Shown piece after piece: positions 1 through 34,025 of a DNA stretch of 43,658 nucleotides (its first letter is position 1; each line of letters opens with the position of its first letter). The notes beneath the pieces are model-generated. The model worked only from the letters and a program-made list of their open reading frames with translations, was not told the DNA's origin and ran no database searches. The translations under genes and the position numbers were made by a program. The stretch is from a virus: IMG/VR virus record IMGVR_UViG_3300035016_000044, positions 1 through 43,658 of that record, one strand, 5' to 3'.

Positions 1-1332
1 GTGGGCAAGGGCCGCTACTCCAAACGCAGCGACAGCGAGATCTATTTCTACGTTCGCAGGGTGCCCCGGCACATGGCCGACCTGGACGGTCGCAAGGTCA
101 TCCGGGAAAGCCTTGGGACGCGCAGCGAGAACGAAGCGGCGACGCTGTCCGCTCAGATCGACAAGGATGTTGAGGCATACTGGGCAGCCCTGCTGGCCGG
201 CCACAATCCCACCGACAGCCGCGCCCGCTATGAAGCGGCGATTGCCCTGGCCCGATCGCTGGGCTTCGTCTACCGGTCGGCCGCTGACATCGTGAAGATG
301 GGCCCGGCGGAGACGATGAAGCGACTCAAGTTCCTCGAGGACAAGGTCGCCAAGCCGAAGATTGTGGAAGCGGTGATGGGCACAGCGCCGGGATCCGTGC
401 TGACGCTCCACACCCTGGTCTCGACCTATCTCGAGAAGAACAAGGTGGACCTGATTGGCAAGTCGCCGGCGCAGTACCGAAAGCACAAAGAGCAGCGGGA
501 GGGGTCGGTGGCCGTGGCGGTCCGGGTTATCGGCGACAAGCAGCTCGCAGATATCACGAACTATGACACCATGATGTACCGCCAGCACTGGGCAGACCGC
601 GTTGCGGCCGGCGAAGTGACACGCGAGTCGGCCAACCGCAGCATGTCCGACGTGAAGGGGATGCTGACCGTCATTGACGACGCCTACAAGACCGAGTTCG
701 GCAAGCCTTGGGAGGGCTTGCGGATCAGGGGCAAGAAGAAGGTGCGGGACAAGCGCCGGCGGCACCCCTACCCGCTCGACTTCGTTCAGAACCGGCTGCT
801 GGCACCAGGCGCACTCGACGGCATGAACGAAGATGCCCGCTACAGCACCTATGGCATGGTTGAGACCGGCATGGGGCCGAGCGAGATCTGCAACCTGAGG
901 CCCGAGGACATCGTGCTTGATCACCCGATCCCGCATGTACGGGTCGCGGAGCGCGACGATCGGGAGCAGAAGACTGTCTATCGCATCCGGGAGGTGCCGC
1001 TAGTCGGGGTGTCACTATGGGCATTCCAACAGCGGCCGCAAGGCTTCATCCGCTATCGCGATCGAGGCACGGCCCTGTCCGCAGTGATCAACAAATACCT
1101 CAAGGAGAATGGTCTAAAGCCGTCGCCTCAGCACTCGGTCTATTCCCTGCGCCACACGTTCCAGGATCGCCTTGTCGCCGCCGGTGCTGTTGATCGGCTG
1201 CAGGTCGACCTCATGGGTCACGAGCTGGGCCGCCAGGAGTATGGCGCCGGCGCCACGCTGGAGCAGAAGCGCGCTATTCTCCAGTCGATCAAGTTCGAGT
1301 GGTCCGCGACATTGCCAACGCGAAAGCTATGA
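1..1332 (+). CDS. int: Phage integrase, tyrosine recombinase with DUF6538-type N-terminus
   Basis: Site-specific recombinase expected to integrate and excise the prophage at att sites. The 443-residue protein starts with a GTG at the first base of the window. The N-terminal stretch to about residue 65 resembles the DUF6538 arm-binding region, residues about 130-240 the core-binding domain, and residues about 255-430 the catalytic domain. Visible catalytic signatures are YSLRHTF (Arg384, His385), MGHELG (His407) and RQEYG with the likely nucleophile Tyr414. Oddly, the box I motif reads ETGMGPSEICNL, with Gly292 where the first catalytic arginine normally sits. The gene converges on the ATPase gene. 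The family assignment is secure, but activity is uncertain because of Gly292. No att core could be identified. Confidence 0.93.
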   Translation: MGKGRYSKRSDSEIYFYVRRVPRHMADLDGRKVIRESLGTRSENEAATLSAQIDKDVEAYWAALLAGHNPTDSRARYEAAIALARSLGFVYRSAADIVKMGPAETMKRLKFLEDKVAKPKIVEAVMGTAPGSVLTLHTLVSTYLEKNKVDLIGKSPAQYRKHKEQREGSVAVAVRVIGDKQLADITNYDTMMYRQHWADRVAAGEVTRESANRSMSDVKGMLTVIDDAYKTEFGKPWEGLRIRGKKKVRDKRRRHPYPLDFVQNRLLAPGALDGMNEDARYSTYGMVETGMGPSEICNLRPEDIVLDHPIPHVRVAERDDREQKTVYRIREVPLVGVSLWAFQQRPQGFIRYRDRGTALSAVINKYLKENGLKPSPQHSVYSLRHTFQDRLVAAGAVDRLQVDLMGHELGRQEYGAGATLEQKRAILQSIKFEWSATLPTRKL

Positions 1333-1499: not shown

Positions 1500-3611
1500 T
1501 CACCTAGCCAGCGACGGGGGAAGCTGAGCGTCGAACTGCCTGAACAGGATCTGCAAATTTTCGTCGGTCTCTGCCAATCGGCGGAGTAGTTCCCACGTCT
1601 TCTCGCCTCCGATCTCCTTGATGACCTCCAACCGGGAATCACCCCCCTCGATGTCAGCGATCTCCAGCATGCTGGCGAGCAACTCCACATACACAGCCCT
1701 GCACTCGGTGAAGATTTCACTCCAAGTCTTAGGCTCGATGCGCCTGTCGTTCACCACGTAGGAGCCTCGGTTGCCGACCAAAACGCCAGTAACGACTGCC
1801 TCGGACCGTTGTGCCTTGATGAAGTCCAAGTATGAGACCAGCTGCCTCTCCTGTTCAACACCAAGGGGCAGCTCGGGTTTTTTGATCTCCACCACCTTTA
1901 TCCGCTTGTCGTCAGGCGATGTAAGAAACACAAAGTCAGCTCGCTGATTGGCGTCCATGCCTTTGATGGCAACGCCGGGATCATAGCGACTCTCGTCTCC
2001 CAAGGCGTCTGCAGCTGCGTCAATCGTAGTCTTCAACCACTTATCGGCCGTGAGTAGATCTCCCCTTGGCTGCAGGATCCAAGGAAACTCTGTCACCAAT
2101 CTCTGCAGGTCTGTTTCGGACCGCTGGTGTACAAGCTCATACAACACTGAGAGCGCAAATGCGCGCTGCGAGAAGGTCAACGCCAGCCCCATTTTTTCAG
2201 GGACCGAATATAGCGATAGTTTGTTGACCACGTCGGCCAACTGCGCAGGAGTTGCATTGGTGGAGAGCAGGCTTTTCCATAGTTCTCCGAGGAAGATGCG
2301 CGTGGGCTGATTTATCCACGCCTTCGAGACGGCGATCAGTAGCTCCTCGCGGGTTGCCTCCGCTTCCTTAGTTTTGCCGATCTCTCTGGTAGCCTCAGAT
2401 ACAAGGTTTACGATCTGATCATTCTCGGCCCGTGAATATGTGTTCACCTTTTTCTCTGCCCGAAGAGCTACTGCCTGATCTGCAACTTGCCGGTCCTGCT
2501 TCTCCTTCCTGAATGCCTCGTAGGAAGTGATCCAGGCCCCGACCTTCTTGTTACCCCAATCGTGCAACTCCTTCATTTTTGGGGAGCTCCAGTCGATCGC
2601 CGTACGGTCGGTCGAAATCAGATCCTCATCCTCCTCGTCCACCCAGTCAGCTTCGACAACTGCATACAGATACCGTTGGAAGACTTCCTTCCCCTTTCGA
2701 TTGAAGAAGTAGGGTCTCGTCTGAGCGATCTTGCCGTGGGCAAACACGCCCACCCCCGCTTCATCAGCTGGCCACTCTGCAGCCCCCACAAATCCAACCC
2801 AATACTTCACTTGATGGCCACCAACGTCCTCAATGAGCACATCGGTGTCAGAAGGTATTCTAAACTCGAACTTTGGCAGGGCGTCCTCCTCGGTGAGTTG
2901 TACTGAGCCGATGCGGACGGAAAAGTCCGGCCTAAGGAGTATGACGGTGAATCTGGACCCTAGTTCCTTTGCAATGAACTCCCTAGTGGGCATCTGATTT
3001 GCCACAATGCGGCTCATGCAGATTAGCGTGCCAGTAGCTTCGGCACCCCCGGCTTTCAGCGCGTCCAGAAACGAGTTGACTCGCGACGTGAGATAGCTGT
3101 CGCTTAGAGCGACGACTTCCGTGGCAGGCACATCCTGCAGGTGGAACTTAGGAGGATACGCACCCGTGGCTCCCACCTTTAGAATTTGATCCAAATCCAG
3201 TGTAAATAAGTTGAGCAGGCCGCCGTGTACGGTGGCAACGTCTACAGTTCTCGCGATTCCGAAGGGAGCTAGCTTGCCAAGGCCTTTGCGACCCATTGGC
3301 ATACGCCCGCCGGACGATCTTTCCTTTGCGGATTTTCGCTTGGGCTTACCCACCTGCAGATAGTGGTCGCGGATTGTTTCGAACGACATGCCCACCCCGT
3401 TGTCGGCGATAACGATGCGTCCGTTGCCGTCATCTCCGGCATTCTCGTCAAGTTCTATGTCCACCCACTTTGCATCGGCGTCCCAGCAATTCGCCACTAG
3501 CTCGGCCAGGACGTTGCCGGCTTTGTTGCGGTAAAGCTTGATGCCCAAGTGCTCAATTACATTGTGGGAAAACCTGAGCTCAGGCCGGATTCCACCTTCA
3601 ACGACAGCCAA
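1500..3611 (-). CDS. GHKL ATPase fused to a C-terminal PD-(D/E)XK nuclease-like domain
   Basis: 703-residue protein, probably an ATP-gated nuclease of a defence or restriction system. The N-terminal GHKL (Hsp90/MutL/MORC-type) ATPase shows an N-box ELVANCWDAD (Glu37, Asn41, Asp44), G1 motif DNGVGM (Asp70) and glycine lid GRKGLGK (107-113). The C-terminal part shows ADFVFL (Asp559), then VVEIKKP (Glu575, Lys577) and a downstream Gln/Tyr-containing helix, the PD-(D/E)XK pattern also seen in Shedu-like nucleases. The middle of about 350 residues is not recognised. The start is TTG 3611, preceded by a purine-rich AAGGGGG; no suitable ATG precedes the N-box. It is transcribed divergently from the RHH and methyltransferase genes. 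MutL/MORC-like ATPases paired with DNA methylases are known in R-M systems, but the role here is inferred. Base composition is visibly lower in GC than in the phage genes. Confidence 0.85.
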   Translation of the reverse strand: MAVVEGGIRPELRFSHNVIEHLGIKLYRNKAGNVLAELVANCWDADAKWVDIELDENAGDDGNGRIVIADNGVGMSFETIRDHYLQVGKPKRKSAKERSSGGRMPMGRKGLGKLAPFGIARTVDVATVHGGLLNLFTLDLDQILKVGATGAYPPKFHLQDVPATEVVALSDSYLTSRVNSFLDALKAGGAEATGTLICMSRIVANQMPTREFIAKELGSRFTVILLRPDFSVRIGSVQLTEEDALPKFEFRIPSDTDVLIEDVGGHQVKYWVGFVGAAEWPADEAGVGVFAHGKIAQTRPYFFNRKGKEVFQRYLYAVVEADWVDEEDEDLISTDRTAIDWSSPKMKELHDWGNKKVGAWITSYEAFRKEKQDRQVADQAVALRAEKKVNTYSRAENDQIVNLVSEATREIGKTKEAEATREELLIAVSKAWINQPTRIFLGELWKSLLSTNATPAQLADVVNKLSLYSVPEKMGLALTFSQRAFALSVLYELVHQRSETDLQRLVTEFPWILQPRGDLLTADKWLKTTIDAAADALGDESRYDPGVAIKGMDANQRADFVFLTSPDDKRIKVVEIKKPELPLGVEQERQLVSYLDFIKAQRSEAVVTGVLVGNRGSYVVNDRRIEPKTWSEIFTECRAVYVELLASMLEIADIEGGDSRLEVIKEIGGEKTWELLRRLAETDENLQILFRQFDAQLPPSLAR

Positions 3612-3724
3612 GATTCCCCCTTAAAACAATGTAGCGCACAACTTTTAGAGCATTAATCCGCTCTGAAACGCATCACAACAGCTTTGAACTAGCATATTGT
3701 TAAGGTGCACCACCTCTGGCATGG

Positions 3725-3743
3725 TGGCGCCACAATGGCGCCA
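3725..3743. promoter_or_regulatory. Tandem palindromic operator between the ATPase and RHH-methyltransferase arms
   Basis: Two copies of the perfect palindrome TGGCGCCA lie at 3725-3732 and 3736-3743, 11 bp apart centre to centre, i.e. on the same DNA face. A related palindrome, GGTGCACC, lies at 3704-3711. They sit 10-50 bp before the RHH start at 3754 and upstream of the divergent ATPase gene. Arc/MetJ-like RHH proteins bind such tandem half-site arrays, so autoregulation by the adjacent RHH protein is the natural reading. That is inference. No convincing -35/-10 pair was found. Confidence 0.5.
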
Positions 3744-3753
3744 TGGGGCAGTT

Positions 3754-3933
3754 ATGACGAAATCGCGAGACGAGTGGCGCGGTAGCCTCCGCATGCCGAA
3801 AGAGATGTATGATGCCGTTGCAAGTCTCTGCGACAAGAGAGCAGGAACGGTATCCGTTAATACTTGGATCGTCGAGGCAATCGCGGAGAGACTTGATCGA
3901 GAAGGTTATCTTCAAACGGGCGGTAAGGCTTGA
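3754..3933 (+). CDS. Small Arc-like ribbon-helix-helix regulator
   Basis: 59-residue protein beginning MTKSRDEWRGSLRMPKEM. The short segment WRGSLRMP is the expected beta-strand, followed by helix A (EMYDAVASLCDKR), a turn with SVN, and helix B (TWIVEAIAERL), the Arc/MetJ/CopG fold. ATG 3754 is chosen because the upstream extension would run through the palindromic operator and gives an unlikely N-terminus. The stop is 2 nt before the methyltransferase ATG, so the two genes are probably translated from one message. Its likely role is a dimeric DNA-binding controller of the restriction-like cassette, analogous to C proteins of R-M systems. Family is fairly sure; target is inferred. Confidence 0.75.
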   Translation: MTKSRDEWRGSLRMPKEMYDAVASLCDKRAGTVSVNTWIVEAIAERLDREGYLQTGGKA

Positions 3934-3935
3934 GG

Positions 3936-5045
3936 ATGGATTTTCTCGAGTTCTTCGCGGGCGGGGGGATGGCAAGAGCCGGTTTGGGTCTGGACTGGCG
4001 ATGCGTGTATTCCAACGACTATGATGCCAAGAAGGTCGCGTCGTATGTCGCCAACTGGGGCGATCAGGAAATTGAATGCGGCGATGTGAAATCAGTAGAA
4101 CACGTTAGCCTGCCATCAGCGAAACTGGCATGGGCGTCGTTCCCGTGTCAGGACCTATCGCAGGCTGGGGCGGGCGCAGGACTAGGCGGAGAGCATTCCG
4201 GCACGTTTTGGCCGTTCTGGGACAAGATCAAAGGGCTTAAGGAAGCCGGCAGAGCCCCAGACCTCGTGGTCTTAGAAAACGTACAGGGGTCCATCACCTC
4301 TCATGGCGGGAAGGACTTCGCTGCGATCTGCGATGCCCTTGCCGGCACCGGCTACCGCGTTGGCGCAGTCTTGATCGACGCTGCGCTGTTTGTTCCTCAG
4401 TCTAGGCTGCGGCTGTTTGTAATCGGGGTGTCCGAAACAATAGATATTCCCGAGCACATGGTTTCCGACAAGCCTCAGTCCCCTTGGCATAGCCGCTCCC
4501 TATCCGCCGCAGCCCGAGCTCTTCCGGAGCGCACAAGACAAATGTGGCTTTGGTGGAAGTTGCCCGTTCCGCCTCCCAGAAGAACGACCTTGCTCGACTT
4601 GCTAGATGATGACGAGCTCGCGCAAGGCTGGCACACAGAGGAGGAGACGGCACGTTTGCTCGCCCTGATGTCGGAACTTCACAAGAAAAAACTGGAGGTT
4701 GTGGCTGGCCTAGACCGGCGCGTTGTGGGGTCGGTCTACAAAAGGAGAAGGACTGAAGAGGGCGTGAAGCGTCAGCGCGCTGAAGTGAGATTCGATGATG
4801 TTGCAGGTTGCCTGAGAACGCCGACCGGCGGCTCCAGCCGTCAAACTGTTCTCATAGTTCAGGGAGAAAACGTGCGGTCACGGTTCCTCCAACCTCGTGA
4901 GGCGGCGAGACTCATGGGTCTCGACGATGAGTACCTACTTCCAGACAATTACTATGAAGCATATCACCTCGTTGGAGACGGCGTGGTGGTCCCGGTGGTC
5001 AACTTCCTGGCAAAGAACATCCTCACACCACTTGCTCAGCAGTAA
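3936..5045 (+). CDS. DNA (cytosine-5) methyltransferase, Dcm/HhaI type
   Basis: 369-residue C5-cytosine methylase. Motif I (LEFFAGGGMARAGLG) begins at residue 3, so the N-terminus is complete. Motif IV carries the catalytic Cys in SFPCQDLSQAG, motif VI is LENVQG, motif VIII QSRLRLFVIGV, motif IX FLQPREAARLMGL and motif X VGDGVVVPVVNFLA. The region between motifs VIII and IX (about 165-290) is the target-recognition segment, so specificity cannot be read. ATG 3936 is preferred over an in-frame TTG at 3930. It follows the RHH gene with a 2-nt gap and is divergent from the GHKL-nuclease. It probably protects host DNA from that nuclease; a solitary protective methylase is the alternative. Confidence 0.93.
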   Translation: MDFLEFFAGGGMARAGLGLDWRCVYSNDYDAKKVASYVANWGDQEIECGDVKSVEHVSLPSAKLAWASFPCQDLSQAGAGAGLGGEHSGTFWPFWDKIKGLKEAGRAPDLVVLENVQGSITSHGGKDFAAICDALAGTGYRVGAVLIDAALFVPQSRLRLFVIGVSETIDIPEHMVSDKPQSPWHSRSLSAAARALPERTRQMWLWWKLPVPPPRRTTLLDLLDDDELAQGWHTEEETARLLALMSELHKKKLEVVAGLDRRVVGSVYKRRRTEEGVKRQRAEVRFDDVAGCLRTPTGGSSRQTVLIVQGENVRSRFLQPREAARLMGLDDEYLLPDNYYEAYHLVGDGVVVPVVNFLAKNILTPLAQQ

Positions 5046-5121
5046 ATTCTGACACTTGAGTCCTGCCGGGATCGCCAGCCACTTTTCGCCCCGTTGTTTC
5101 CGTTGGCTTTTTCAGCCGATT

Positions 5122-5159
5122 TTGTCCCACTATCTCGCAGCATATTTCGAGTGGGACAA
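5122..5159. repeat. Perfect 10-bp inverted repeat in the gap after the methyltransferase
   Basis: TTGTCCCACT (5122-5131) and AGTGGGACAA (5150-5159) are perfect inverted copies separated by 18 nt, inside the 187-nt gap 5046-5232 between convergent genes. It could be a weak bidirectional terminator, a protein-binding site or a remnant recombination site at the edge of the cargo island. The loop is long and no strong T run follows, so a plain terminator is not compelling. Nothing else was recognised in this gap. Confidence 0.4.
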
Positions 5160-5232
5160 TTTTGTTCCCCGCGTGTTCCCGCACCAGTTACTGGCAACGC
5201 CCTCAAAGCCACCGCCCTCGCTTCCGATGGGC

Positions 5233-5677
5233 CTAGGGGTTAGGCGGTCCGATGAAGTGCTCACCATGCCGTTCCGCCTTCTCGATCGCCTTGAGTTTTG
5301 CCCGGGCCTCAGCGTTCATCACCGCATTGCTCTTGATGCCCAGCCGCTTCTGCTCTGCCTCGAACTCGTGATGCAGCCGCGTCGCTTCCTCGACCGATAG
5401 AGCCGGACGCTGGCTGCCGTGGCCACCCACCCCCGGCTCTTTTGTCCGGTTGCAGCGGCGGATGAACAATGAGGGTGGCACCGCGCTGCCCGCACTCTTC
5501 ACACACGAGCCGGGCGAAGGCGGTCCGGTCCCGAACGAAGTCAGCATCGGGTCCGAAATACTGGATCAGCTGATCCCATGACGGCGTCCAGCTATGGTGG
5601 CACGCTTCACCCAGGTCGGAGCGGCAGTAGAGCGTCATGCTCCACCCCTGGTCTTTCATTTCCCGCAGCGTTGCCAT
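5233..5677 (-). pseudogene. Frameshifted gene for a small Cys-containing hypothetical protein
   Basis: Reading starts at ATG 5677 (MATLREMKDQGWSMTLYC...) with two Cys groups (residue 18 region and CEEC), compatible with a zinc-ribbon-like fold. After GATLIVHPPLQPD the frame degenerates into arginine/glycine-rich nonsense. A different frame continues sensibly (KEPGVGGHG, then SVEEATRL... to EHFIGPPNP, stop at 5233). Removing one A from the run AAAA (plus-strand TTTT 5440-5443) joins the halves into about 147 residues. The change needed is +1/-2, not a usual programmed -1 slip, so a mutation or sequencing error is likelier. It is 15 nt downstream of the 54-residue gene, in one operon. Function unknown. 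Confidence 0.6.
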
Positions 5678-5692
5678 GGGCGCGGAGCGTAG

Positions 5693-5857
5693 TCACGTGC
5701 GGCGCTTGGCCTTCTGCTTTCGGTAGAGCATCGCGGCCTTGATCTGGCCCGCCGTGACGCCAAGTTGCTCCCGCAACTGCTCGTCTGACAGTGACGGGTC
5801 GGCGGCCTTGGCACGGCGGATGCGCTCCGCAGGGCTGAGCTTGATGGCAATGTTCAT
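5693..5857 (-). CDS. Small hypothetical protein, HTH-like, 54 residues
   Basis: Begins MNIAIKLSPAERIRRAKAAD and ends in a basic tail KQKAKRRT. The middle (LSDEQLREQLGVTAGQIKAAM) looks like a helix-turn-helix: two helices around GVTAGQ with a following recognition-type helix, so DNA binding is possible. The start ATG 5857 has a strong Shine-Dalgarno, GGAGGTG, at normal spacing. A GTTC-N7-GTTC box lies about 40 nt upstream. The downstream gene in the same direction is the frameshifted one at 5233-5677. I do not recognise the family; SOS-linked expression is inferred from the box. Confidence 0.65.
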   Translation of the reverse strand: MNIAIKLSPAERIRRAKAADPSLSDEQLREQLGVTAGQIKAAMLYRKQKAKRRT

Positions 5858-5897
5858 GGGTCACCTCCAGCTGGGAAGTGACGACTCCTAGCACCGT

Positions 5898-5912
5898 GAA
5901 CAGAATAAGAAC
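5898..5912 (-). promoter_or_regulatory. Putative LexA (SOS) box, GTTC-N7-GTTC
   Basis: On the minus strand the sequence reads GTTCTTATTCTGTTC, an exact GTTC-N7-GTTC direct repeat, the known alphaproteobacterial LexA recognition pattern. It lies between divergent genes (minus start 5857, plus start 5955), so it could control either or both. The match is exact, but the pattern has only eight fixed bases, so chance occurrence is possible. Confidence 0.5.
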
Positions 5913-5954
5913 AATATGCTTGCCGATCACATCGCTTCCGGCTAATTTGCCGCC

Positions 5955-6224
5955 ATGGAAAGCCGCGACAAGAAGCCCGCCCAGCCCACAAAGCTCATCG
6001 TCCTGCTCGCCTTCGTGCGGGACGAGGAGGGCGAGCTGCAGCCTGCTTTTGAGCCGAGGGAAGTGCAGTCCGAGGACAAGGCCAAGATGGATGCCCGGCG
6101 GCTGGCAGCTCTGGGGACCTATGAGGGCGTCATCGCCTGGTCGCGCAGTGCCGATCTCGTCAACGGCGAGTTTGGCGACCCCGTCGTGCTGTTTCAGCAC
6201 GGCACCATTCCGGACATGGAATAG
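5955..6224 (+). CDS. Hypothetical protein, 89 residues
   Basis: Acidic protein beginning MESRDKKPAQPTKLIVLLAF. A beta-strand-like LIVLLAFVR, a helical KAKMDARRLAAL, and strands GVIAWSRSA and GDPVVLFQHG suggest a small compact alpha/beta protein. No signal peptide or membrane segment is evident. It is divergent from the 54-residue gene across the LexA-like box and converges on the membrane gene at 6226 with one base between stop codons. I do not recognise the family. Coding is supported by natural composition and start position. Confidence 0.7.
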   Translation: MESRDKKPAQPTKLIVLLAFVRDEEGELQPAFEPREVQSEDKAKMDARRLAALGTYEGVIAWSRSADLVNGEFGDPVVLFQHGTIPDME

Positions 6225-6225
6225 G

Positions 6226-6567
6226 CTACCGCGGCCCGCGGACCTTGTCCGCCAGGGCCCGAACCTCGTGGCGCAGCTCGATCACCTCGCGAATGAAGCG
6301 GTCCAGCACACCGGTCATCTCATCGCTGGCATCCTGGGTCACCTTGTTCTGCTCTGCTAGAGTGACATTCAAACCCTCGATCGAGGCGGCTACCTGGTGC
6401 ACCGCCGATGCGTCCAGAGTCATGGCGGCAATCTCGGCTTTGCCACCGCCCGCCTTGCGGTTGTTGACGATGGCAACGGCAACGCCGGCCATGGCTGCTA
6501 TGATGGCGGTGACGACGCCGATGACGGCAACCTGTGTCGGCGAATCTAGTGCGGTGAACCAATCCAC
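6226..6567 (-). CDS. Small membrane protein with C-terminal coiled coil, end of lysis cassette
   Basis: 113 residues from a GTG at 6567 with AGGAG six bases upstream. One clear membrane segment (VAVIGVVTAIIAAMAGVAVA, residues 13-32) follows a short polar N-terminus. The rest is helical and heptad-like (ASIEGLNVTLAEQNKVTQDA, FIREVIELRHEVRALADKV). It is the last gene of the minus-strand lysis block, following another membrane protein. It could be an accessory holin/antiholin or a membrane-anchored structural helper. Function is inferred from position only. Confidence 0.75.
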   Translation of the reverse strand: MDWFTALDSPTQVAVIGVVTAIIAAMAGVAVAIVNNRKAGGGKAEIAAMTLDASAVHQVAASIEGLNVTLAEQNKVTQDASDEMTGVLDRFIREVIELRHEVRALADKVRGPR

Positions 6568-6995
6568 AGCCGGCTCCTGATGGCTAGATAAGTGTCCATC
6601 CCGGCACGGGCGGAGTTGAACAGGTCTCCCGCCATCAGTACCAGGGCGAGAATCATGGCCATCGGTGGGCCATACTGGTTTGTCGCCATGGCATAGCCGG
6701 CGGCGATCGATGAGAAGAGCCCGACGCCGGCAATGGCAACGACGCAGCGGATCGGTGCGGAGACCTCCGGCTTATGACCGTTCAGCCACAACGCTCCGAT
6801 GCGGCTGGCGCCGAGGATGAGGCTTGCAGCGACCCACCAGCCAACGGGCGCGATGACGGAAAAGCCCGAAAGCCCCGCTCGCTCGAAAGCGGTCGGCCAG
6901 ATCACCAGGTAGAGCCCGATCAGGATCATGGCGATGCCGCCCAGCCATTCGGCAATGCGGAGCGGTATCTTCTCTCGGAAGCGGAGATAGATCAC
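6546..6995 (-). CDS. Multi-pass membrane protein in lysis cassette
   Basis: 149 residues from GTG 6995, whose start overlaps the Rz1-like stop (GTGA). Four hydrophobic segments can be seen: about residues 16-35 (LGGIAMILIGLYLVIWP), 46-65, 84-105 and 112-127. This resembles small phage membrane proteins carried beside holins. The C-terminus overlaps the start of the 113-residue membrane gene. It may be an additional holin, antiholin or lysogenic-conversion protein; no diagnostic motif is seen. Confidence 0.75.
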   Translation of the reverse strand: MIYLRFREKIPLRIAEWLGGIAMILIGLYLVIWPTAFERAGLSGFSVIAPVGWWVAASLILGASRIGALWLNGHKPEVSAPIRCVVAIAGVGLFSSIAAGYAMATNQYGPPMAMILALVLMAGDLFNSARAGMDTYLAIRSRLWIGSPH

Positions 6996-7216
6996 GGCCG
7001 CCTCGCACAGCGGTCGAGAGCGTCGTAGTGCTGGCTGAGGTCAATGACCCACCCTGCCGCCTGCTCGTCCCCCCGGGCCGCCTTCTCAAGGGCATCCACG
7101 GCAGCGGCCGGCGGCGAAGGCAGATCAGGGCAGACGCCGATCGCCGGTACCGGAACGCTGGCGCAGCCGGCCAAGAGCATCATCGAGGCCGCGATCATCA
7201 GCATGGATTTCATCAT
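6992..7216 (-). CDS. Rz1-like outer-membrane spanin lipoprotein
   Basis: 74 residues: MMKSMLMIAASMMLLAGC shows a signal peptide and lipobox (LLAGC, Cys18), followed by a Pro-rich stretch VPVPAIGVCPDLPSPP, as in Rz1 proteins. It should be lipidated, sit in the outer membrane and pair with the Rz-like protein for the final lysis step. Its first 92 nt overlap the Rz-like gene in another frame and it extends beyond it, the overlapped spanin arrangement. Start 7216 or the adjacent ATG 7213 are equivalent. Confidence 0.8.
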   Translation of the reverse strand: MMKSMLMIAASMMLLAGCASVPVPAIGVCPDLPSPPAAAVDALEKAARGDEQAAGWVIDLSQHYDALDRCARRP

Positions 7217-7373
7217 AGTCTTGTCGCAGGGCCTCCGCCTGCGCCTCCTGTTCCCGTTGCACCTCGGCCCTGCCTTCGATCTTGCCCTGCTGCCGATTGA
7301 GCCACGTCGACAGCCAGGTCTTGAGCAGGCCGAGCAACGCCCGGCCTACGAAGCTTAGGAAGGCGCTACCCAT
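7125..7373 (-). CDS. Rz-like inner-membrane spanin subunit
   Basis: 82 residues: an N-terminal amphipathic or membrane segment (FLSFVGRALLGLLKTWLSTWL, roughly residues 5-25) followed by a charged helical domain rich in Gln/Glu/Arg (IEGRAEVQREQEAQAEALRQ), typical of short i-spanins. It overlaps the holin-like gene end (7366) by 8 nt, and the Rz1-like gene begins inside it. Sequence similarity to named Rz proteins is weak; the call rests on topology, overlap with a lipoprotein gene and lysis context. Confidence 0.7.
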   Translation of the reverse strand: MGSAFLSFVGRALLGLLKTWLSTWLNRQQGKIEGRAEVQREQEAQAEALRQDYDEIHADDRGLDDALGRLRQRSGTGDRRLP

Positions 7374-7902
7374 TGGAGGAAACCGGATCGGAGTAGAGCA
7401 GCGACCGCTCCGCCTGCTTGGCCGCCGCGGCCTTGAGGATCCAGTTCTCCGACGGCTTGAGGGACTTCACGGCATCGGGAACCGAATCCAGCACCGACTG
7501 GATGACATGGGCGGCGGCCGGCGAGCCGACATCGAGCTTGAGCCCTGCGCCGTACTTGCTGACGGCCGAGCCGAGGCTGGTGGCGACGGCCGAGTGCAGC
7601 GCCTCGCGGTGCTGCGCCTCGATCGCGCGGTACTGCGCCTCGAGGTCGATCTTCCACTTGTCGCGCAGAAGCTTCACCAGCCAGAGGCCGGCGAGCCCCA
7701 GAACGGTGAGCACCAGCTCGGCCGCGATCGGCACCAGGGCCAGCAGCGGCGAGCCGAGATCGACCGTCGACGTCGGCTCCTGGGCGAAGGCCGCGACCGT
7801 CAGGGATAGCGCCCAAAGGATCAGGGCCAACCCGACGATGATCCAGCCACGGGGAAGTGAAAAGGCAAGCGGGCGCGCCGCCTGCAGCATGTGCAGTCGC
7901 AT
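7366..7902 (-). CDS. Holin-like protein (LLH-type phage holin)
   Basis: 178 residues with two membrane segments: about 19-41 (GWIIVGLALILWALSLTVAA) and about 54-75 (LLALVPIAAELVLTVLGLAG). A helical cytoplasmic domain follows (KWKIDLEAQYRAIEAQHREA) with the sequence ALHSAVATSLGSAVSKYG. This layout matches LLH-family holins. It sits directly downstream of the endolysin and upstream of the spanins, as expected for the protein that permeabilises the inner membrane. Exact family membership needs a profile search; position strongly supports the role. Confidence 0.7.
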   Translation of the reverse strand: MRLHMLQAARPLAFSLPRGWIIVGLALILWALSLTVAAFAQEPTSTVDLGSPLLALVPIAAELVLTVLGLAGLWLVKLLRDKWKIDLEAQYRAIEAQHREALHSAVATSLGSAVSKYGAGLKLDVGSPAAAHVIQSVLDSVPDAVKSLKPSENWILKAAAAKQAERSLLYSDPVSSNG

Positions 7903-7938
7903 GGGTAGTCTCCTGGTTATCGTGAGGGGGGCAGAACG

Positions 7939-8700
7939 TCAGAGGACGGTGCCGAGCTGGTCCAGGCGCACGTCAAAGGATGGGCACGCCTTAGCGGCGT
8001 ACTGATTGTGGCCGGTGACGGCCGCGATGCCGCGGTGCCTGCTGCGCAGTTCCCGTACCAGCCAGAGCAGCGATGCGCGCTGCGCCCGGGTGCGGGTATC
8101 TTTGGCGGCCTTGCCGTCGGCAGTCACGCCACCGACGTAGCTGATGCCGATCGTCCCAGTGTTGCGGCCAGCCACGTGTGCGCCGACCTGGCCAACGGGG
8201 CGGCCAGCCATCACCCGACCGTCGCGATAGACGACATAGTGGTAGCCGATATCGGTCCAGCCACGCTGCTTGTGCCAGGCGCGGATGTCATCGACGGTGA
8301 AGTCCTTGCCGTCAGGCGTCGCCGTGCAATGCACAATGACTTCGGAGATCGGCCGCGCTGTCTCGAGCAACTTGACCGCAGCATCGTTGGGCGGAGGGGC
8401 GCTCGCCACGGGGTCCGCCGGTGCGCTGCAGACCCCCTCCCGCATCGCGGCCTTGTCAGGCTCAGGCCGCCCCGGCTTGGGCGACTCAGCAGCACGACGC
8501 AGTGCGGTCAGCGTCTGCTGGCCAGCAAGACCGTCGACGATCAGGCCAAGCCTGTCCTGGGCAGCCCGCACAGCCGTTTCGGTGGCTGGCCCGAAGTCGT
8601 TGTCGACCAGCAGCACGGGCGAGGCGCCGGCACGGTTGAGCAGTTCCTGCAGCGATCGCACGGCAGCACCGTGCGACCCCCGCTTGAGCAGCGTGGGCAT
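7939..8700 (-). CDS. Endolysin: peptidoglycan-binding domain plus N-acetylmuramoyl-L-alanine amidase
   Basis: 253 residues. Residues 1-75 form a PG_binding_1 domain (LKRGSHGAAVRSLQELL, DNDFGPATETAVRAAQ, VDGLAGQQTLTAL). A Pro/Ala linker of about 40 residues leads to an amidase_2 domain (118-250). Zinc ligands are recognisable as in T7 lysozyme: His124 (VIVHCTATP), His231 (TGHNQYA) and Cys239 (KACPSFDV). No signal peptide is present, so export needs the holin. It is the first gene of the lysis block. Cleaves the amide bond between MurNAc and L-Ala of peptidoglycan. Confidence 0.93.
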   Translation of the reverse strand: MPTLLKRGSHGAAVRSLQELLNRAGASPVLLVDNDFGPATETAVRAAQDRLGLIVDGLAGQQTLTALRRAAESPKPGRPEPDKAAMREGVCSAPADPVASAPPPNDAAVKLLETARPISEVIVHCTATPDGKDFTVDDIRAWHKQRGWTDIGYHYVVYRDGRVMAGRPVGQVGAHVAGRNTGTIGISYVGGVTADGKAAKDTRTRAQRASLLWLVRELRSRHRGIAAVTGHNQYAAKACPSFDVRLDQLGTVL

Positions 8701-8747
8701 GTGATTTTCTCCTGGCTGGAAGGGGACAGGCCTCGCCGGCCCATCGT

Positions 8748-8767
8748 GAAAAGACTCGACTCTTTTC
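8748..8767. repeat. Inverted repeat in the endolysin/OMP divergent gap
   Basis: GAAAAGA (8748-8754) and TCTTTTC (8761-8767) are perfect inverted copies around CTCGAC, about 40 bp before the outer-membrane gene start. It may be an operator for that moron or a short hairpin. It is AT-rich and the assignment is weak. Confidence 0.3.
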
Positions 8768-8805
8768 CGGTCACGCCTTTGAATGTTGGCGGCTGGGGAA
8801 CATCG

Positions 8806-9414
8806 ATGTCCAAAAGAGTAGTGCTGGCAGCCTCGATCTGCCTATTCGCGGCGCCATCGCAGGCTTTGGACTGGACTGGCTTCTATTTCTGAGTTGAGGC
8901 TGGACAGCACTGGAACGACACGCTTAGCCACATCACCATGGCGCCGATGTCGGCAGTAAACTGGTCCCTTGGCCTTACAGGCGGATACTCATGGGGTGCT
9001 GGTGCCGACGCTATTCTCGGTATCGAAGGAGAGATTGGATTTTTGAACGATGGCATTGCGTCGACGCCGCCCAGCATCGTGGCCTACCATCGAACAAGAA
9101 CCTACGGCAGTCTCTCGACCCGAGTCGCACTGTCCTACGATCGGTTCCTTCCGTACGCCTCCGCAGGGCTCCGGCTCATGTATGTTGATGTAGGCGTAAC
9201 AAACGCGAACCCTGCCCTGAGCGCCACACTACGAGGTCTAGGGATACTGCCGACAGCCTCTGTTGGAATTGAAGTCTCGATGACGGATCATCTCTCCTTC
9301 AAGGCCGAGTACAGCGGCACATTCGGCAGCGTATTTCTCCGGCAGGACAACGGAGCAACGTCCGACTTCTACCCTCACTCTGCTCTGAATGTTGGGATGA
9401 ACTACCGGTTCTAG
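8806..9414 (+). pseudogene. Outer-membrane beta-barrel (Omp25-like/porin-family) moron, interrupted by TGA
   Basis: Reading from ATG 8806 (GGGGAA upstream) gives a signal peptide (MSKRVVLAASICLFAAPSQA) and the start of a mature barrel, LDWTGFYF. An in-frame TGA at 8890-8892 follows. The frame then resumes as VEAGQHWNDT and runs to a barrel C-terminus ending in Phe (NVGMNYRF). Changing TGA to GGA would restore GFYFGVEAGQHW, the usual opening of this family, so a single nonsense mutation is the simple reading. The full product would be 202 residues. It lies on the plus strand between minus-strand tail and lysis genes, like lambda lom, suggesting lysogenic conversion. It shares a CTAG with the convergent tail gene. 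Confidence 0.75.
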
Positions 9415-9779
9415 CCCGCCGCGAATTGCCAGAGAGCATCCAGCTCTGCCTCACTGATGCCGATTGCCTGCTGCGCTGCCAGCACCAGCGGATGGTCCCG
9501 CTCGAAGTACTTGGCGAACTCAAGTTTCGCCGATGCCGAGGCCCATGCCACAGGATCATAATACGGGTTGGGCTCATGGCCGTTCTCGCCCTCGATTGTC
9601 GGCTCGTCGAGGCTGGCCACGAATGCACGAACATCAGCGTCATAGCCAGAGGCTCGAAGGCCGAACCAGAAGCGGTCGGGTTCCAGGTCGGGGAAGGCCA
9701 GTTTGCGCGCCGCAGCCGCCGCTTCTGTCGCCTTCTGTTCGGCGGTGATGATGGTGGAGGGATCAGGGCTCCACATTGG
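9411..9779 (-). CDS. Hypothetical tail-end protein, possible tail fibre assembly or accessory
   Basis: 122 residues beginning MWSPDPSTIITAEQKATEAA. The start ATG 9779 lies inside the end of the previous gene, with GAGGAG seven bases upstream. The N-terminal helix rich in Ala/Glu (ITAEQKATEAAAAARKLA) and the position as last gene of the tail operon resemble the short accessory proteins that follow fibre genes in alphaproteobacterial prophages. The C-terminal half (EFAKYFERDHPLVLAAQQAI) is helical. No function can be assigned from sequence. Confidence 0.7.
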   Translation of the reverse strand, partial: PMWSPDPSTIITAEQKATEAAAAARKLAFPDLEPDRFWFGLRASGYDADVRAFVASLDEPTIEGENGHEPNPYYDPVAWASASAKLEFAKYFERDHPLVLAAQQAIGISEAELDALWQFAAG

Positions 9780-10092
9780 CAGGCTCCTCTGGCTGGGCAT
9801 CGGAAGGAACCGGGATCGGCCCGTCCTCGGTCATGGTGATCGGCTCTGGGAAGGCCACAGCCTGTGACGGGTTTGGGCCGTGCGGCAGGATCAGTGTCAG
9901 GCAGACCTCGCCTTCGATCCGTTCGACTGGCCCGAGTATCCACTCGCAAGGAATGACCCCGTTCGGGATGGTGTCACCCTCTTCCAGAGGGTTGAAATTG
10001 AACAGTTCGCCATTGATACGCAGCCGATCGCCAGCCGACTTTTCAAGCATCAGTGTTCCGTCCATGCGGACCGGGGAGAAGTTGACTTTCAT
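9763..10092 (-). CDS. Conserved phage hypothetical protein downstream of tail fibre
   Basis: 109 residues: MKVNFSPVRMDGTLMLEKSA, then a beta-rich sequence (LRINGELFNFNPLEEGDTIP, WILGPVERIEGEVCLTLILP HG) and a Pro/Glu-rich tail. This form (strand, 'F.PLPEG', 'GPVERI.G') recurs after fibre genes in related prophages; its role in assembly is unknown. ATG 10092 is chosen because AGGA lies six bases upstream; ATG 10095 is possible. Its end overlaps the next gene. Confidence 0.75.
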   Translation of the reverse strand: MKVNFSPVRMDGTLMLEKSAGDRLRINGELFNFNPLEEGDTIPNGVIPCEWILGPVERIEGEVCLTLILPHGPNPSQAVAFPEPITMTEDGPIPVPSDAQPEEPANVEP

Positions 10093-10106
10093 CATGCGTC
10101 CTGTGG

Positions 10107-11522
10107 TTAGAACCAACGGCCTGCGGCTATGACGTTTACCGGCCCGTACAGTCCCGAAAGCGCGCCATAGGTGGCGGCCCGAAAAAGCATCAGTCCAATT
10201 GTGCTCGAACTCTTCACCGCGGTGACTTGATGCAAGCGGTTAAGCCAGTCGTTGACATCACCGGTGGTTGGCGAACCTGCAAAGCTCAACGACAAGCCAA
10301 CATCAGCAGTGGCAAAGGCCGCCGGGTACGAAAAGAGCTGATAGGACGTGTTGTTGAAGTCGACCGACGACGAGCAAATGCAGATCTGAGTGCCGTTCGC
10401 GAAGCGAGCATATGAACCGTTGCCGTTGCTCCCACTCTCTATCAGTGCCCCGCTTGGGCCCCCTGATAAGTGCGACACCGTGCCGAGAATATTGCCCCGA
10501 CGAAACGCTTTGTCGGGGGTGAGATCGTCACGGATATGGCTGTTCGGAATTTGGCCCAAAGTCGAAAAGAAGGCCGCCGCGCTCGCGTCGTCGAGCAGCG
10601 ACTGCGCGAAAGCGGACACGCCAAGCCCAGTGAGAGCCGCGCCAGCAGTTGCATCGGCCCCCAGTCGCGAGACCCAGAATGGGGTCACCCCGTCGATATC
10701 GCCCGTGAGGCCCTGAGGAATAGATATGTCGATCCGGTACCCGCCGGTGACCGGCACAAAGTCGACAGCAGCAGGTTGATCAGGCGCCAGCGTCGTCGTC
10801 GTGCCCGGTACGATGATCATGCCGCTCGGGATTGCGAACGCGAGATTGTACCCACCAGCCACAGGTGTGAGAGTCACGCCGGGTGGCGCACCGTGGGGCA
10901 CCGCGTCCACCTCGGTGACATCGAGAGTGATGGCCGGCCCCGACACATAGGCCGGATCAGACCAGTCGCCGCTGGCGTCGGAGCTCTTGGAGTAGATGGC
11001 AGCGCGGCCGTCACCCGAATTGCGCACCAGGACCGCAAACCCCCGACTGTCTGCCGTTGGCCCGGGCCTGGTGCTATAAGCCGCCAGGTCAGCAAGGGCA
11101 TCCACCGCCTGGTCGTAGTCTGCTCCGGATACCAGGTCAGCGATCGCCACAGTAGTAAGGCTGCCGGGCCCGGCAAAACCCAGCACCGTCTGCGCTGCTC
11201 CCTCCACGTCTGCAAGCGACTGTAGGTTGCTGCCTGACAACTGCTGCAGCATCGCCACCAGCTTGGCAGAGATCGTCGCGGCATCGTTTCGGGGTAGGTA
11301 CTGGTAGGCCTTGTCTTCAGCCGTGGTGCCCTGCCACTCCACCACGCCAAGCGCAGCCGTGTCGCTGGTAGGGTCTTCCGCCAGCTGCATTTCGCCGAGG
11401 CCGGGAATGGAGATCACTGAACCAGCCCGCATGTTCTGAAACAGCGTGCCGGTGCCGGCAATGGCCATGGAGCCCTGGGTGAAGGTCACCGTGCCGGGAT
11501 TGGCGGGAACGAAGATGCTCAT
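10107..11522 (-). CDS. Tail fibre / receptor-binding protein
   Basis: 471 residues. The N-terminal part (MSIFVPANPGTVTFTQGSMA; FQNMRAGSVISIPGLGEMQL) resembles virion-attachment regions. Two repeat units with 'GGYNLAFAIPSG' (about residue 220) and 'GGYRIDISIPQG' (about 260) are short fibre-shaft repeats. The C-terminus holds an adhesin-like domain with GSNGNGSYARFANGTQIC and ends in the typical AAGRWF. It should mediate host recognition. It follows two large tail proteins and precedes small accessory genes. Receptor unknown. Confidence 0.8.
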   Translation of the reverse strand: MSIFVPANPGTVTFTQGSMAIAGTGTLFQNMRAGSVISIPGLGEMQLAEDPTSDTAALGVVEWQGTTAEDKAYQYLPRNDAATISAKLVAMLQQLSGSNLQSLADVEGAAQTVLGFAGPGSLTTVAIADLVSGADYDQAVDALADLAAYSTRPGPTADSRGFAVLVRNSGDGRAAIYSKSSDASGDWSDPAYVSGPAITLDVTEVDAVPHGAPPGVTLTPVAGGYNLAFAIPSGMIIVPGTTTTLAPDQPAAVDFVPVTGGYRIDISIPQGLTGDIDGVTPFWVSRLGADATAGAALTGLGVSAFAQSLLDDASAAAFFSTLGQIPNSHIRDDLTPDKAFRRGNILGTVSHLSGGPSGALIESGSNGNGSYARFANGTQICICSSSVDFNNTSYQLFSYPAAFATADVGLSLSFAGSPTTGDVNDWLNRLHQVTAVKSSSTIGLMLFRAATYGALSGLYGPVNVIAAGRWF

Positions 11523-31798: not shown

Positions 31799-32802
31799 CG
31801 CGCCAACCCTCCCCAGCCCCTGCGATCCTGTCCAAGCGCATCTATCGCTTCAAGTAACACCGGCAATCCATCACCCTTTCTCTGCATTTCGGCTTTGATT
31901 GCGACCTGCCAGACCGTCCCTATGTCCATCGATCGAGAGAGACCTTCGGCGAATCCAGCCTTGTCCGATGGCAGAAAGGTCGCTCGCAGATGCGCATCGA
32001 GTTGCCCGAACAGCTTGGACCGCACCGCTTCCTCCGATTTCTCCCGACCGCCGCCGATCGGCATCATGATCTCGAGCTGGCGCCGGTCGCGCTCTTGGTC
32101 CGAACGCCTGCGCCGTTCTCTCCCCAACATCGAACCTGAATCTGGTTTCCTAAGATGGTTTTGGGTGACAACCTTGTCCGGGTCGGCGGACAGAGTTGGC
32201 CGGGTCAGATCACCCTCGCCCGCTCGCTCGACGATCAGCGGCCAGTTCGGTTGGTAGGCGTTGGCGTGGTTGCGCCCGCCATGCCGAAAACGCCCGAACA
32301 GCCCGCTGTTGACCAGGTCGGTGACCGAACGCCGCACCGTCCGGATGGAAACCCCGCAGCTGGCCGCCAGCGAGGCAGTGCCGGGGTCGCAGCGCCCGGT
32401 ACCGAGGTTGAAGTGCTCGATGAGCTGCGAGCCGATGGCAATGGCGCTGGGCCGCAGCATCGATTGCGCCAGCGCCTTGCGCGCCAGGGCTTTCGCGCCG
32501 TCCGGCGGGGGTGTGACCACCACGGGAGCCAGCATCGGCCTGGCCGCCTTGCTGGCCGCATTGACCCGGACAGAGTTGGCCGGCTCGTTCATGTTGGCAA
32601 CGGCCGGCACCGGGACAGCGGCCACGCCGGCAACAGCGCTATTCATCGCCCTGACCACCGAGCGAACGACAACCAGCTTGAGCCGATCGAACGCTGCGAC
32701 GTAGTTCGCGCCCTCATAGCCTTCGGCCATAAGCTGCCGAGCGAGGTCACCACAGGCCTCGGCAACCAGCATGGCGATCGCTTCAGATGCTGTATCGGTC
32801 AA
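31795..32802 (-). CDS. wHTH replication-type protein (phage replication initiator candidate)
   Basis: 335 residues from a TTG at 32802 whose TTGA overlaps the upstream stop; ATG 32772 is an alternative, and a longer frame to 32862 would overlap the PP-loop gene by 64 nt. The middle contains a winged HTH: CDPGTASLAASCGVSIRTVRR, then SVTDLVNSGLFGRFRHGGRN HANAYQPN, the pattern of phage and plasmid replication proteins and lambda O-type N-termini. The N-terminus is Ala/Val-rich and the C-terminus helical and basic. Two perfect 17-bp direct repeats lie within the gene. No DnaB-loader or helicase gene is nearby, so replication initiation is inferred. Confidence 0.65.
   Translation of the reverse strand: MTDTASEAIAMLVAEACGDLARQLMAEGYEGANYVAAFDRLKLVVVRSVVRAMNSAVAGVAAVPVPAVANMNEPANSVRVNAASKAARPMLAPVVVTPPPDGAKALARKALAQSMLRPSAIAIGSQLIEHFNLGTGRCDPGTASLAASCGVSIRTVRRSVTDLVNSGLFGRFRHGGRNHANAYQPNWPLIVERAGEGDLTRPTLSADPDKVVTQNHLRKPDSGSMLGRERRRRSDQERDRRQLEIMMPIGGGREKSEEAVRSKLFGQLDAHLRATFLPSDKAGFAEGLSRSMDIGTVWQVAIKAEMQRKGDGLPVLLEAIDALGQDRRGWGGLAR
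32187..32583. repeat. Pair of 17-bp direct repeats inside the wHTH gene
   Basis: CGGACAGAGTTGGCCGG occurs exactly at 32187-32203 and 32567-32583, 380 bp apart. The two copies are read in different codon contexts, so a protein repeat does not explain them. They could be iteron-like sites for the encoded protein, as in the lambda O gene origin, or chance in GC-rich DNA. No third copy was noticed. Confidence 0.35.
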
Positions 32803-34025
32803 TGGTTGCCCCGGAAGAGTAGAGGCTGCACCGAGCCGTCCTGAAATACACTGTCGAGCCACATATCTGCCGGCGGCTCGTCCCCCACCCAGCCATTCGG
32901 CCAGGTCCGTTCTGCTATCAGCTCACGAATGCGCGCCTCTTCCTCGGCATTGATCAGGTCAATCACCGGACGGCTCAGCCGGATCGCGGCAGCGTTGCAA
33001 TCGGCTTGGATGGCAAGCACCCGGTCGAGCCCCATCAACCGAGCTTCAAAGTTCAGGGGGCCCATGCGTTGCGGGTTAGCGGCGATCGAGCCGTCCTTGA
33101 GCCGCTCCAGCCCTTCCTTGCGAATCCGATGCCGCGGCTCCCGCAGCTCGCGATAGAGCGGCTTCAGGCCTTTGAGCGGCGCGAGGTAAGACCACGCAGG
33201 AGTGGCAACGACAGTATCGAGCGCCTTGTCCTGGTCAGTGAGCGGACAGCCGGTGCAGCCCGTCCGCGTGTTAATCTCGGCAGCTTCCTCGCCACCATAC
33301 GCATCGGCCACGGCAGCCGTTTCCCAGCCGCCATAGCGCTCCGATGGTGCGAAGATGCGCAGCCAGTCCCACACGTTGCAGACGCGCCAGTGCAGCAATG
33401 GGGCCAGCGTGGCGATGCGCCCACGTACGCCCTTGGCATTCGGCAGCACCTGCTGATACCAGCCCTGGCCACACTCTGCGCCGTCCTTGGAACAGCTCAT
33501 GACGATGCGCTGATCACGGATCGCGCTTTCGCCCTGCCGCACACCGGTAATCATCAGGATGTTGCCGTCCAGCTCATCGATGCGGCTGGCCAGCGCCTCG
33601 GTCATCGGGTCGACCTTGATTTGCCGCGTGCACCACCGAAGCGTGTTGTTGTTGGGCGGCGGCACACCGCGCCCGAGGATGTAGACGAGGAACCGCTTTT
33701 CGAGTGGCGCCCGGACAACCTCCACCCGTATGCCACGGGCGCGCAGCTGCTGCATGACGCGCTCGGCCGCGATGGCCAGCGGCGGCAACTCCTGCCGCGT
33801 GTCAGCATAAAAGACCGATAGCGACTTCGGCGGCTGCAGCAGCCCGACGTCGATCAGGTGCGCTATGACGGTCACAGTTGCCGAACTGTCCTTGCCACCC
33901 GAATAGGCAATCGCCCAATGATCATGCGACGCGCCATAGGCCCGCATCGAGGCAAGCGTCATCTCCATGGCGTCGTCGTAGCTAAGACGCTGCGTGCCGC
34001 CGAACAGTGTGGGCTGGAAGTTCAT
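32799..34025 (-). CDS. PP-loop ATPase of the PAPS reductase / DndC-like family
   Basis: 408 residues. A PP-loop (AYSGGKDSSATVT, 40-52) binds ATP. RWCTRQIKVDP and ITGVRQGESAIRDQR are typical of phage PAPS-reductase/DndC-like proteins. Cysteines in RWC, MSC, AEC and CTGCPLTDQD could bind an Fe-S cluster as in DndC. DndC acts in DNA phosphorothioation with DndA, B, D and E; none of those is seen here, so sulphur modification is only a possibility. It might instead act in nucleotide or tRNA modification. The start overlaps the HNH gene stop (ATGA). Present in a DNA-processing early operon. Confidence 0.85.
   Translation of the reverse strand: MNFQPTLFGGTQRLSYDDAMEMTLASMRAYGASHDHWAIAYSGGKDSSATVTVIAHLIDVGLLQPPKSLSVFYADTRQELPPLAIAAERVMQQLRARGIRVEVVRAPLEKRFLVYILGRGVPPPNNNTLRWCTRQIKVDPMTEALASRIDELDGNILMITGVRQGESAIRDQRIVMSCSKDGAECGQGWYQQVLPNAKGVRGRIATLAPLLHWRVCNVWDWLRIFAPSERYGGWETAAVADAYGGEEAAEINTRTGCTGCPLTDQDKALDTVVATPAWSYLAPLKGLKPLYRELREPRHRIRKEGLERLKDGSIAANPQRMGPLNFEARLMGLDRVLAIQADCNAAAIRLSRPVIDLINAEEEARIRELIAERTWPNGWVGDEPPADMWLDSVFQDGSVQPLLFRGNH

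What the first reader, a model, noticed from the sequence alone, without database searches (positions are those of the whole stretch)
1500..5045. Compact GHKL-ATPase/PD-(D/E)XK nuclease paired with a C5 methylase and an RHH controller
Seen: one 703-residue protein combines an intact GHKL ATPase (N-box Asn41, DNGVGM, GRKGLGK) with a D...EIK nuclease signature, divergent from an RHH gene and a complete m5C methylase. No separate restriction enzyme or helicase is present. MutL/MORC-like GHKL ATPases linked to methylases are known in comparative genomics of R-M systems, but usually with extra helicases or endonucleases. Here ATPase and nuclease are one chain with a self-contained regulator, carried as cargo by a prophage. 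It may be a minimal ATP-gated, methylation-sensitive restriction system.
Basis: partly seen in the sequence, partly recalled or inferred. Interest (0 to 1): 0.78.

Follow-up and report, generated by a model that had tools for sequence, protein, structure and literature searches.

The report
GHKL restriction nuclease with swapped methylase
A prophage carries a compact two-enzyme DNA-defence cassette, most likely an ATP-driven DNA-cutting enzyme plus the methylase that marks 'self' DNA; this design is already known (paraMORC3, HgiDII/BbrUII), and what is new is that its methylase module was probably borrowed from a different restriction system, whose own cutter is missing here.

Summary
The protein at 1500-3611(-) is an intact GHKL ATPase with a C-terminal PD-(D/E)XK nuclease: E499-D559-E575 are invariant in 43 aligned sequences and K577 is kept in 39. 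It is divergent from an RHH gene (best start 3754) and a complete m5C methylase. It is the paraMORC3 architecture published in 2008, and NCBI curates a family for it (BbrUII/HgiDII restriction enzymes); this protein is a divergent relative below that family's cut-off. Of 56 relatives with enough flank, 47 lie next to a C5 methylase, against 1 of 28 in a more distant GHKL group. New here: (1) the RHH-methylase module comes from a conventional R-M family that normally carries its own type II endonuclease, absent in the window; (2) the nearest ATPase relatives have methylase + separate endonuclease + ATPase, and their methylases are not sisters of the window's (AU p=1e-6), so the module was probably swapped; (3) a conserved operator, two TGGCGCCA palindromes 11 bp apart, lies just upstream of the RHH gene here and in related plasmids and phages. 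Most likely a type II-like R-M system whose GHKL nuclease is the restriction enzyme. Cleavage, ATP dependence and methylation sensitivity are untested.

The parts
1500..3611 (-). GHKL ATPase (res ~11-330, with S5-like transducer), helical region (~344-496), PD-(D/E)XK nuclease (~499-612) and C-terminal helices; predicted restriction nuclease, 703 aa, TTG start
3725..3743 (.). Predicted RHH operator: TGGCGCCA-CAA-TGGCGCCA, two perfect 8-bp palindromes in 11-bp register
   Evidence: only such tandem in the window (0.15 expected per simulated window); conserved upstream of RHH-MTase modules in plasmids and phages
3754..3933 (+). Ribbon-helix-helix (Arc/CopG-like) regulator, 59 aa from ATG 3754 (ORF extends to 3697)
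3930..5045 (+). m5C DNA methyltransferase (DruM2/PDLC00028-type, 371 aa), start overlaps RHH stop (TTGA)
3612..3753 (.). 142-bp divergent intergenic region between ATPase and RHH-MTase operon (promoters not found by consensus scan)
1..1332 (+). Tyrosine integrase adjacent to the cassette (prophage end; may be cut by the contig end)

Best explanation
A prophage-borne type II-like restriction-modification cassette of the paraMORC3 / HgiDII-BbrUII kind. The GHKL-PD-(D/E)XK protein is the restriction enzyme. By analogy with MutL, MORC and VcSduA, ATP binding would dimerise the N-terminal GHKL domains into a DNA clamp, and hydrolysis would control the C-terminal nuclease, which cuts unmethylated target sites. 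The m5C methylase marks the same sites as self. The RHH protein represses its own RHH-methylase operon through two TGGCGCCA boxes, so a newly arrived prophage could make methylase first. Shown here: domain architecture, conserved catalytic residues, family-wide adjacency to m5C methylases, the conserved operator, absence of another REase of the expected kinds, and non-sister methylases in the sister loci. Inferred: cleavage, ATP gating, methylation block, shared target site, repression.
For: NF050001 BbrUII/HgiDII restriction enzyme 1.5e-48 over residues 12-580, and PADLOC type II REase models 2e-28. Relatives in phage PhiR44_1 and Haloplanus score 751 and 794 bits against the 550 cut-off, each beside a Dcm-type gene. 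Adjacent C5 MTase in 47/56 relatives with flank vs 1/28 of distant GHKL proteins. E37, N41, D70, E499, D559, E575 are invariant in 43 aligned sequences. Many clade members are bare ATPase+MTase pairs (L002, L023, L034, L100-L104). The C-terminus matches NucS and the Shedu nuclease fold; the N-terminus matches MORC ATPases. The operator co-occurs with RHH: 8 of 12 RHH loci vs 1 of 47 others, and that one, L012, has an RHH by BLAST. The target-recognition region of the MTase is strongly conserved across its family.
Against: The window protein is far below the NF050001 equivalog cut-off (166 vs 550 bits), so HgiDII's activity cannot simply be transferred. The sister loci L019, L020 and L027 keep a separate type II REase between MTase and ATPase, so in that lineage the ATPase was not the only restriction enzyme. 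A near-identical MTase+REase pair without the ATPase exists (L166). A distant relative, VcSduA, acts without a methylase. The window MTase is the most deviant of its close family (differs at 19 of 158 conserved columns), which could mean relaxed constraint.
Confidence: 0.6

Rival explanations
1. Two separate modules: an autonomous Shedu/VcSduA-like GHKL nuclease that senses phage DNA without any methylase, lying next to an RHH-regulated methylase that became an orphan when its own REase was lost (anti-restriction or silent cargo).
For: VcSduA (GHKL + PD-(D/E)XK, no methylase) defends against phages and needs both active sites. The MTase family normally has its own REase: 37 of 59 family members with the 285-aa REase (3 of them with the ATPase too) and 8 with DUF4928. 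The MTase in the window is not the sister of those in the closest ATPase loci, so the two genes did not travel as one unit. Best PDB match of the C-terminal model is the Shedu nuclease domain.
Against: Across this ATPase clade and beyond a C5 MTase is nearly always adjacent (47/56), whereas the more distant GHKL group, tested the same way, has it in 1/28. The window protein has no match to SduA_C. In the window the two share one 142-bp divergent intergenic region.
Confidence: 0.24
2. The ATPase is an accessory factor of a conventional R-M system (DNA looping or activating a separate REase, as Iyer et al. proposed for MORCs), and in the window it is stranded because the REase was lost.
For: MTase-REase(PDLC03501)-ATPase gene order in L019, L020 and L027; the window is nested among them in the ATPase tree (SH-aLRT 95 with L019), so REase loss is the parsimonious reading.
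Against: The nuclease residues of the window protein and of 39-43 of 43 aligned sequences are conserved, and many clade members have no other recognised REase nearby. M+R modules without the ATPase are the norm.
Confidence: 0.1
3. A DNA-repair or degenerate remnant: MutL/NucS-like ATPase-nuclease acting on mismatches, or an inactive relic.
For: C-terminal profile matches NucS/EndoMS mismatch endonuclease (2e-7); MutL models hit the N-terminus weakly.
Against: All catalytic residues are intact in both enzymes, the frames are open, the ATPase branch length is ordinary (0.28), and the R-M association is family-wide.
Confidence: 0.06

Closest known systems
paraMORC3 family (Iyer, Abhiman & Aravind 2008, PMC2292703)
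   Same: N-terminal GHKL + S5, C-terminal RE-fold nuclease with E-D-ExK, found in R-M gene neighbourhoods with cytosine methylases, laterally mobile
   Different: No SFII helicase or Vsr within the cassette; RHH with its own operator; MTase module of the REase-bearing DruM2/PDLC00028 family
BbrUII/HgiDII restriction enzymes (NCBIfam NF050001; M.HgiDII methylates GTCGAC)
   Same: Single-chain GHKL-type restriction enzyme beside an m5C methylase, two-gene cassette
   Different: 166 bits against a 550-bit cut-off, a separate clade; its MTase belongs to another family (about 22% identity to those partners), so the target site need not be GTCGAC
VcSduA, GHKL-type Shedu (PMC12137116)
   Same: GHKL ATPase + PD-(D/E)XK nuclease in one chain; both active sites needed for phage defence there
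   Different: VcSduA works as a single gene without a methylase; no SduA_C/DUF4263 match here
RHH-MTase-REase(-Vsr) type II R-M modules of plasmids and phages (PDLC03501 or DUF4928 REase)
   Same: Same RHH type, same operator TGGCGCCA x2, same MTase family (up to 59% identity)
   Different: They carry a dedicated REase downstream of the MTase; the window has none and has the GHKL nuclease divergently instead

Membership tests
paraMORC3 | GHKL domain with intact ATP-binding motifs | tested here: met
   HATPase_c_3 2.6e-19; E37, N41, D70, G72, G74, G107, G110, G112 invariant
paraMORC3 | S5-like transducer after the GHKL domain | tested here: met
   AF2 model (pLDDT 82.5) aligns over ~400 columns with MORC2/3/4 and Hsp90 GHKL+transducer structures, though with rmsd about 7 A
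paraMORC3 | C-terminal RE-fold nuclease with E-D-ExK | tested here: met
   E499/D559/E575/K577 conserved; NucS profile hit; Shedu/EcoO109I/McrC/Kpn2I in fold search, best E 0.004
paraMORC3 | R-M gene neighbourhood (m5C methylase) | tested here: met
   MTase 319 bp away, divergent; 47/56 relatives
BbrUII/HgiDII equivalog (NF050001) | Score above the curated 550-bit cut-off | tested here: not met
   165.8 bits, while PhiR44_1 and Haloplanus relatives score 751 and 794
BbrUII/HgiDII equivalog (NF050001) | Cleavage at GTCGAC blocked by cognate m5C methylation | not testable with these tools
   No biochemical assay possible
Shedu (SduA) | SduA_C / DUF4263 domain | tested here: not met
   No PF14082 match in the window protein at E<=1; only a structural resemblance to the Shedu nuclease
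Type II R-M with C-protein control | HTH controller (C protein) gene ahead of REase | tested here: not met
   The controller is RHH (Arc-like), ahead of the MTase
RHH-MTase-REase plasmid modules | Dedicated REase (PDLC03501 or DUF4928) after the MTase | tested here: not met
   tblastn of both REases finds nothing in the window
RHH-MTase-REase plasmid modules | RHH gene with tandem TGGCGCCA operator upstream of this MTase family | tested here: met

The most novel reading that the evidence does not exclude
A GHKL-nuclease has displaced a conventional type II endonuclease as the restriction partner of an RHH-regulated methylase, keeping the methylase family's target site while switching to an ATP-gated cutter; the sister loci with methylase + endonuclease + GHKL-nuclease would be the intermediate state.
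Probability: 0.3. Interest if true: 0.55.

Novelty: new variant of a known kind. Interest (0 to 1): 0.36.

Why it matters
R-M systems with GHKL (MutL/MORC-like) proteins are the proposed ancestors of eukaryotic MORC silencing proteins, yet I found no biochemical account, in the papers I could search, of how the ATPase gates the nuclease. This prophage cassette, with natural relatives that carry or lack a separate endonuclease and different methylases, makes it possible to ask directly whether the GHKL nuclease is the restriction enzyme, whether it needs a matching methylase, and how the RHH operator times expression.

Tried and rejected
Single-protein scans of viral and genome contigs found no relatives because the patterns were too specific; alignment queries worked. 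Phage records alone are too poor: 3 weak hits. phmmer against PDB gave nothing useful for the ATPase. The fold search with the full-length model shows only ATPase matches, so the C-terminus was modelled apart. The PWI and HSDR_N_2 Pfam hits are sub-threshold and were ignored. Consensus sigma-70 and terminator scan: nothing beyond shuffles. The exact operator as a marker for this system was rejected: of 19 exact matches in viral contigs only one lies by an RHH-MTase, so the motif counts only in context. Joint descent of the window MTase with those of L019/L020 was rejected by the AU test, with the caveat of the window's long branch. 'Relatives' search is not possible for a virus record. The Shedu classification paper PMC11805627 is not held. 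No paper found on RHH-controlled R-M with these operators. The methylase target site could not be inferred: no characterised close homologue was found, and GTCGAC is not transferable.
Full report
OBSERVATION. The ORF at 1500-3611(-) is open for 703 residues. It matches HATPase_c_3 at residues 33-148 (2.6e-19). The named motifs are present: N-box with E37 and N41, DNGVGM at D70, GRKGLGK at 107-113. The divergent ORFs are an RHH protein and a complete C5 methylase. The RHH ORF opens at 3697, but the domain, the operator (below) and the sequence before ATG 3754 (GGGG-CAGTT-ATG) favour 3754-3933. The ATPase TTG start has a Shine-Dalgarno AAGGGGG four bases upstream. The contig is a tailed prophage or phage: terminase, portal, head protease, tape measure and tail fibre genes lie on the minus strand, and a tyrosine integrase lies beside the cassette.

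THE NUCLEASE. In an alignment of 43 sequences (the window and relatives from other genomes) E499, D559 and E575 are invariant, and K577 is Lys in 39 and Met in 4. This is the E-D-ExK set by which paraMORC3 was defined. A profile of the C-terminal 249 residues matches the nuclease region of archaeal NucS/EndoMS (2.2e-7). An AlphaFold2 model of that part (pLDDT 83.7) finds the Shedu nuclease domain first (8ti9, E 0.0037, probability 1.00) and then EcoO109I, McrC and Kpn2I. The E-values are modest and unrelated folds appear further down the list, but the leading hits are PD-(D/E)XK nucleases. The full model (pLDDT 82.5) aligns its N-terminal half with MORC2, MORC3 and MORC4 ATPase structures.

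WHAT IT BELONGS TO. NCBIfam's BbrUII/HgiDII restriction enzyme model hits residues 12-580 at 1.5e-48 but at 166 bits against a cut-off of 550. PADLOC calls it a type II REase. Relatives that do pass the NCBI cut-off lie next to cytosine methylases, among them a phage protein already annotated 'ParaMORC3' beside 'Dcm'. M.HgiDII is an m5C methylase of GTCGAC (PMC5867850). Iyer et al. (PMC2292703) described paraMORC3 as GHKL+S5 with a fused RE-fold nuclease in R-M operons.

PAIRING. Of 66 distinct relatives scoring >=300 bits with my profile, 44 have a C5 MTase within 300 bp; of the 56 with at least 1.5 kb on both sides, 47 have one within 1.5 kb. Among more distant GHKL proteins (<200 bits) the figures are 0 of 32 and 1 of 28. 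The association is therefore specific to this family, and not a property of GHKL proteins of similar length in general. Within the window's own clade (18 rows, SH-aLRT 99) three MTase families occur, which barely align with each other. MTase families have been exchanged while the pairing persisted.

THE METHYLASE MODULE IS PROBABLY BORROWED. The window MTase is up to 59% identical to plasmid and phage MTases, most of which sit in ordinary R-M modules: RHH (sometimes), MTase, a dedicated REase (285-aa PDLC03501 type, or DUF4928 type) and often Vsr. Of 59 family members, 37 carry the 285-aa REase, three of them together with a GHKL nuclease, 8 carry DUF4928, and the window alone has a GHKL nuclease without either. 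No REase of either kind is encoded in the window. The three nearest relatives of the window's ATPase (67-69% identity; L019, which is also viral contig L099, L020 and L027, all alphaproteobacterial) have the order MTase - 285-aa REase - ATPase on one strand. In the ATPase tree the window is nested among them (95 with L019), but its MTase is not: a tree holding window, L019 and L020 MTases together is rejected (delta lnL 105, AU p 1.3e-6), and the reduced tree puts the window near L009/L011/L018/L144 (DUF4928 modules; L009, L011 and L018 have the same RHH type), SH-aLRT 86. The caveat is the window's long branch: it deviates at 19 of 158 family-conserved columns, the most of any member compared. 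Since MTases of this family share a strongly conserved recognition region, a swap within the family may have kept the target site; that is inference.

A CONSERVED OPERATOR. Just upstream of the RHH start are two perfect copies of the palindrome TGGCGCCA, 11 bp apart (3725, 3736). It is the only perfect tandem 8-bp palindrome in the window; 0.15 are expected in a simulated window. The same boxes in the same register (one or both copies perfect) precede the RHH genes of Serratia, Burkholderia, Methylocystis and Azospirillum plasmids, phage Menos, and three viral contigs, with a single copy in some others. They occur in 8 of 12 loci with an RHH hit and 1 of 47 without (Fisher 1.9e-6), and that one (L012) has an RHH by BLAST. 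Related sequences inflate such a p-value. Tandem short palindromes one turn apart are what MetJ/Arc-type RHH dimers bind (established knowledge), so autoregulation of the RHH-MTase operon is likely; whether the ATPase promoter, with its start codon 114 bp away, is also controlled is unknown.

MECHANISM. Best-supported: a type II-like R-M cassette whose restriction enzyme is the GHKL nuclease. Evidence that such a chain works by ATPase plus nuclease comes from VcSduA, where E27A and K557A each abolish phage defence (PMC12137116), though VcSduA works without a methylase. The main rival is therefore an autonomous Shedu-like nuclease beside an unrelated, orphaned methylase. Family-wide methylase adjacency argues against it; the presence of a separate REase in the sister loci argues for caution.

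VERDICT. Observation confirmed; interpretation partly supported; the architecture is known, and the module exchange and the operator are the new parts.

Noticed in passing
window 37116-38564(-): A second DNA methyltransferase, ParB-like fused (phrog_359, phrog_21315 and phrog_4715 matches), is encoded among the phage's own genes, apart from the cassette.
   Followed up: no
window 32799-34025(-) and 34022-34870(-): A PAPS-reductase moron gene (phrog_12882, 1e-232) adjoins an HNH endonuclease gene.
   Followed up: no
L025 (Chromobacterium alticapitis), 2509-10408: Two adjacent GHKL-nuclease genes follow TniQ/TnsD-like genes (by eye); L004 (Acinetobacter plasmid) also has its MTase-ATPase pair beside annotated TniB/TniQ. 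The cassette may travel on Tn7-like elements too.
   Followed up: partly
L021, L022, L024 (Pseudomonas, Lysobacter): Three-gene arrangement: GHKL-nuclease, C5 MTase, then a second GHKL protein of about 690-700 aa; in L021 the second one has a weak SduA_C match. Possible heteromeric system.
   Followed up: partly
L019, L020, L027 around 5000-5930: The 285-aa type II REase (PDLC03501; H-D-Y and (D/E)LKG motifs) has no Pfam or NCBIfam model and no PDB sequence relative, though it is widespread in plasmid and phage R-M modules.
   Followed up: partly
viral contigs L124-L142: 19 exact TGGCGCCA-N3-TGGCGCCA sites, only one beside an RHH-MTase; the others may be operators of other RHH regulators.
   Followed up: no
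L166 vs L019: Nearly identical MTase+REase modules with and without the downstream GHKL nuclease: a natural presence/absence pair.
   Followed up: partly
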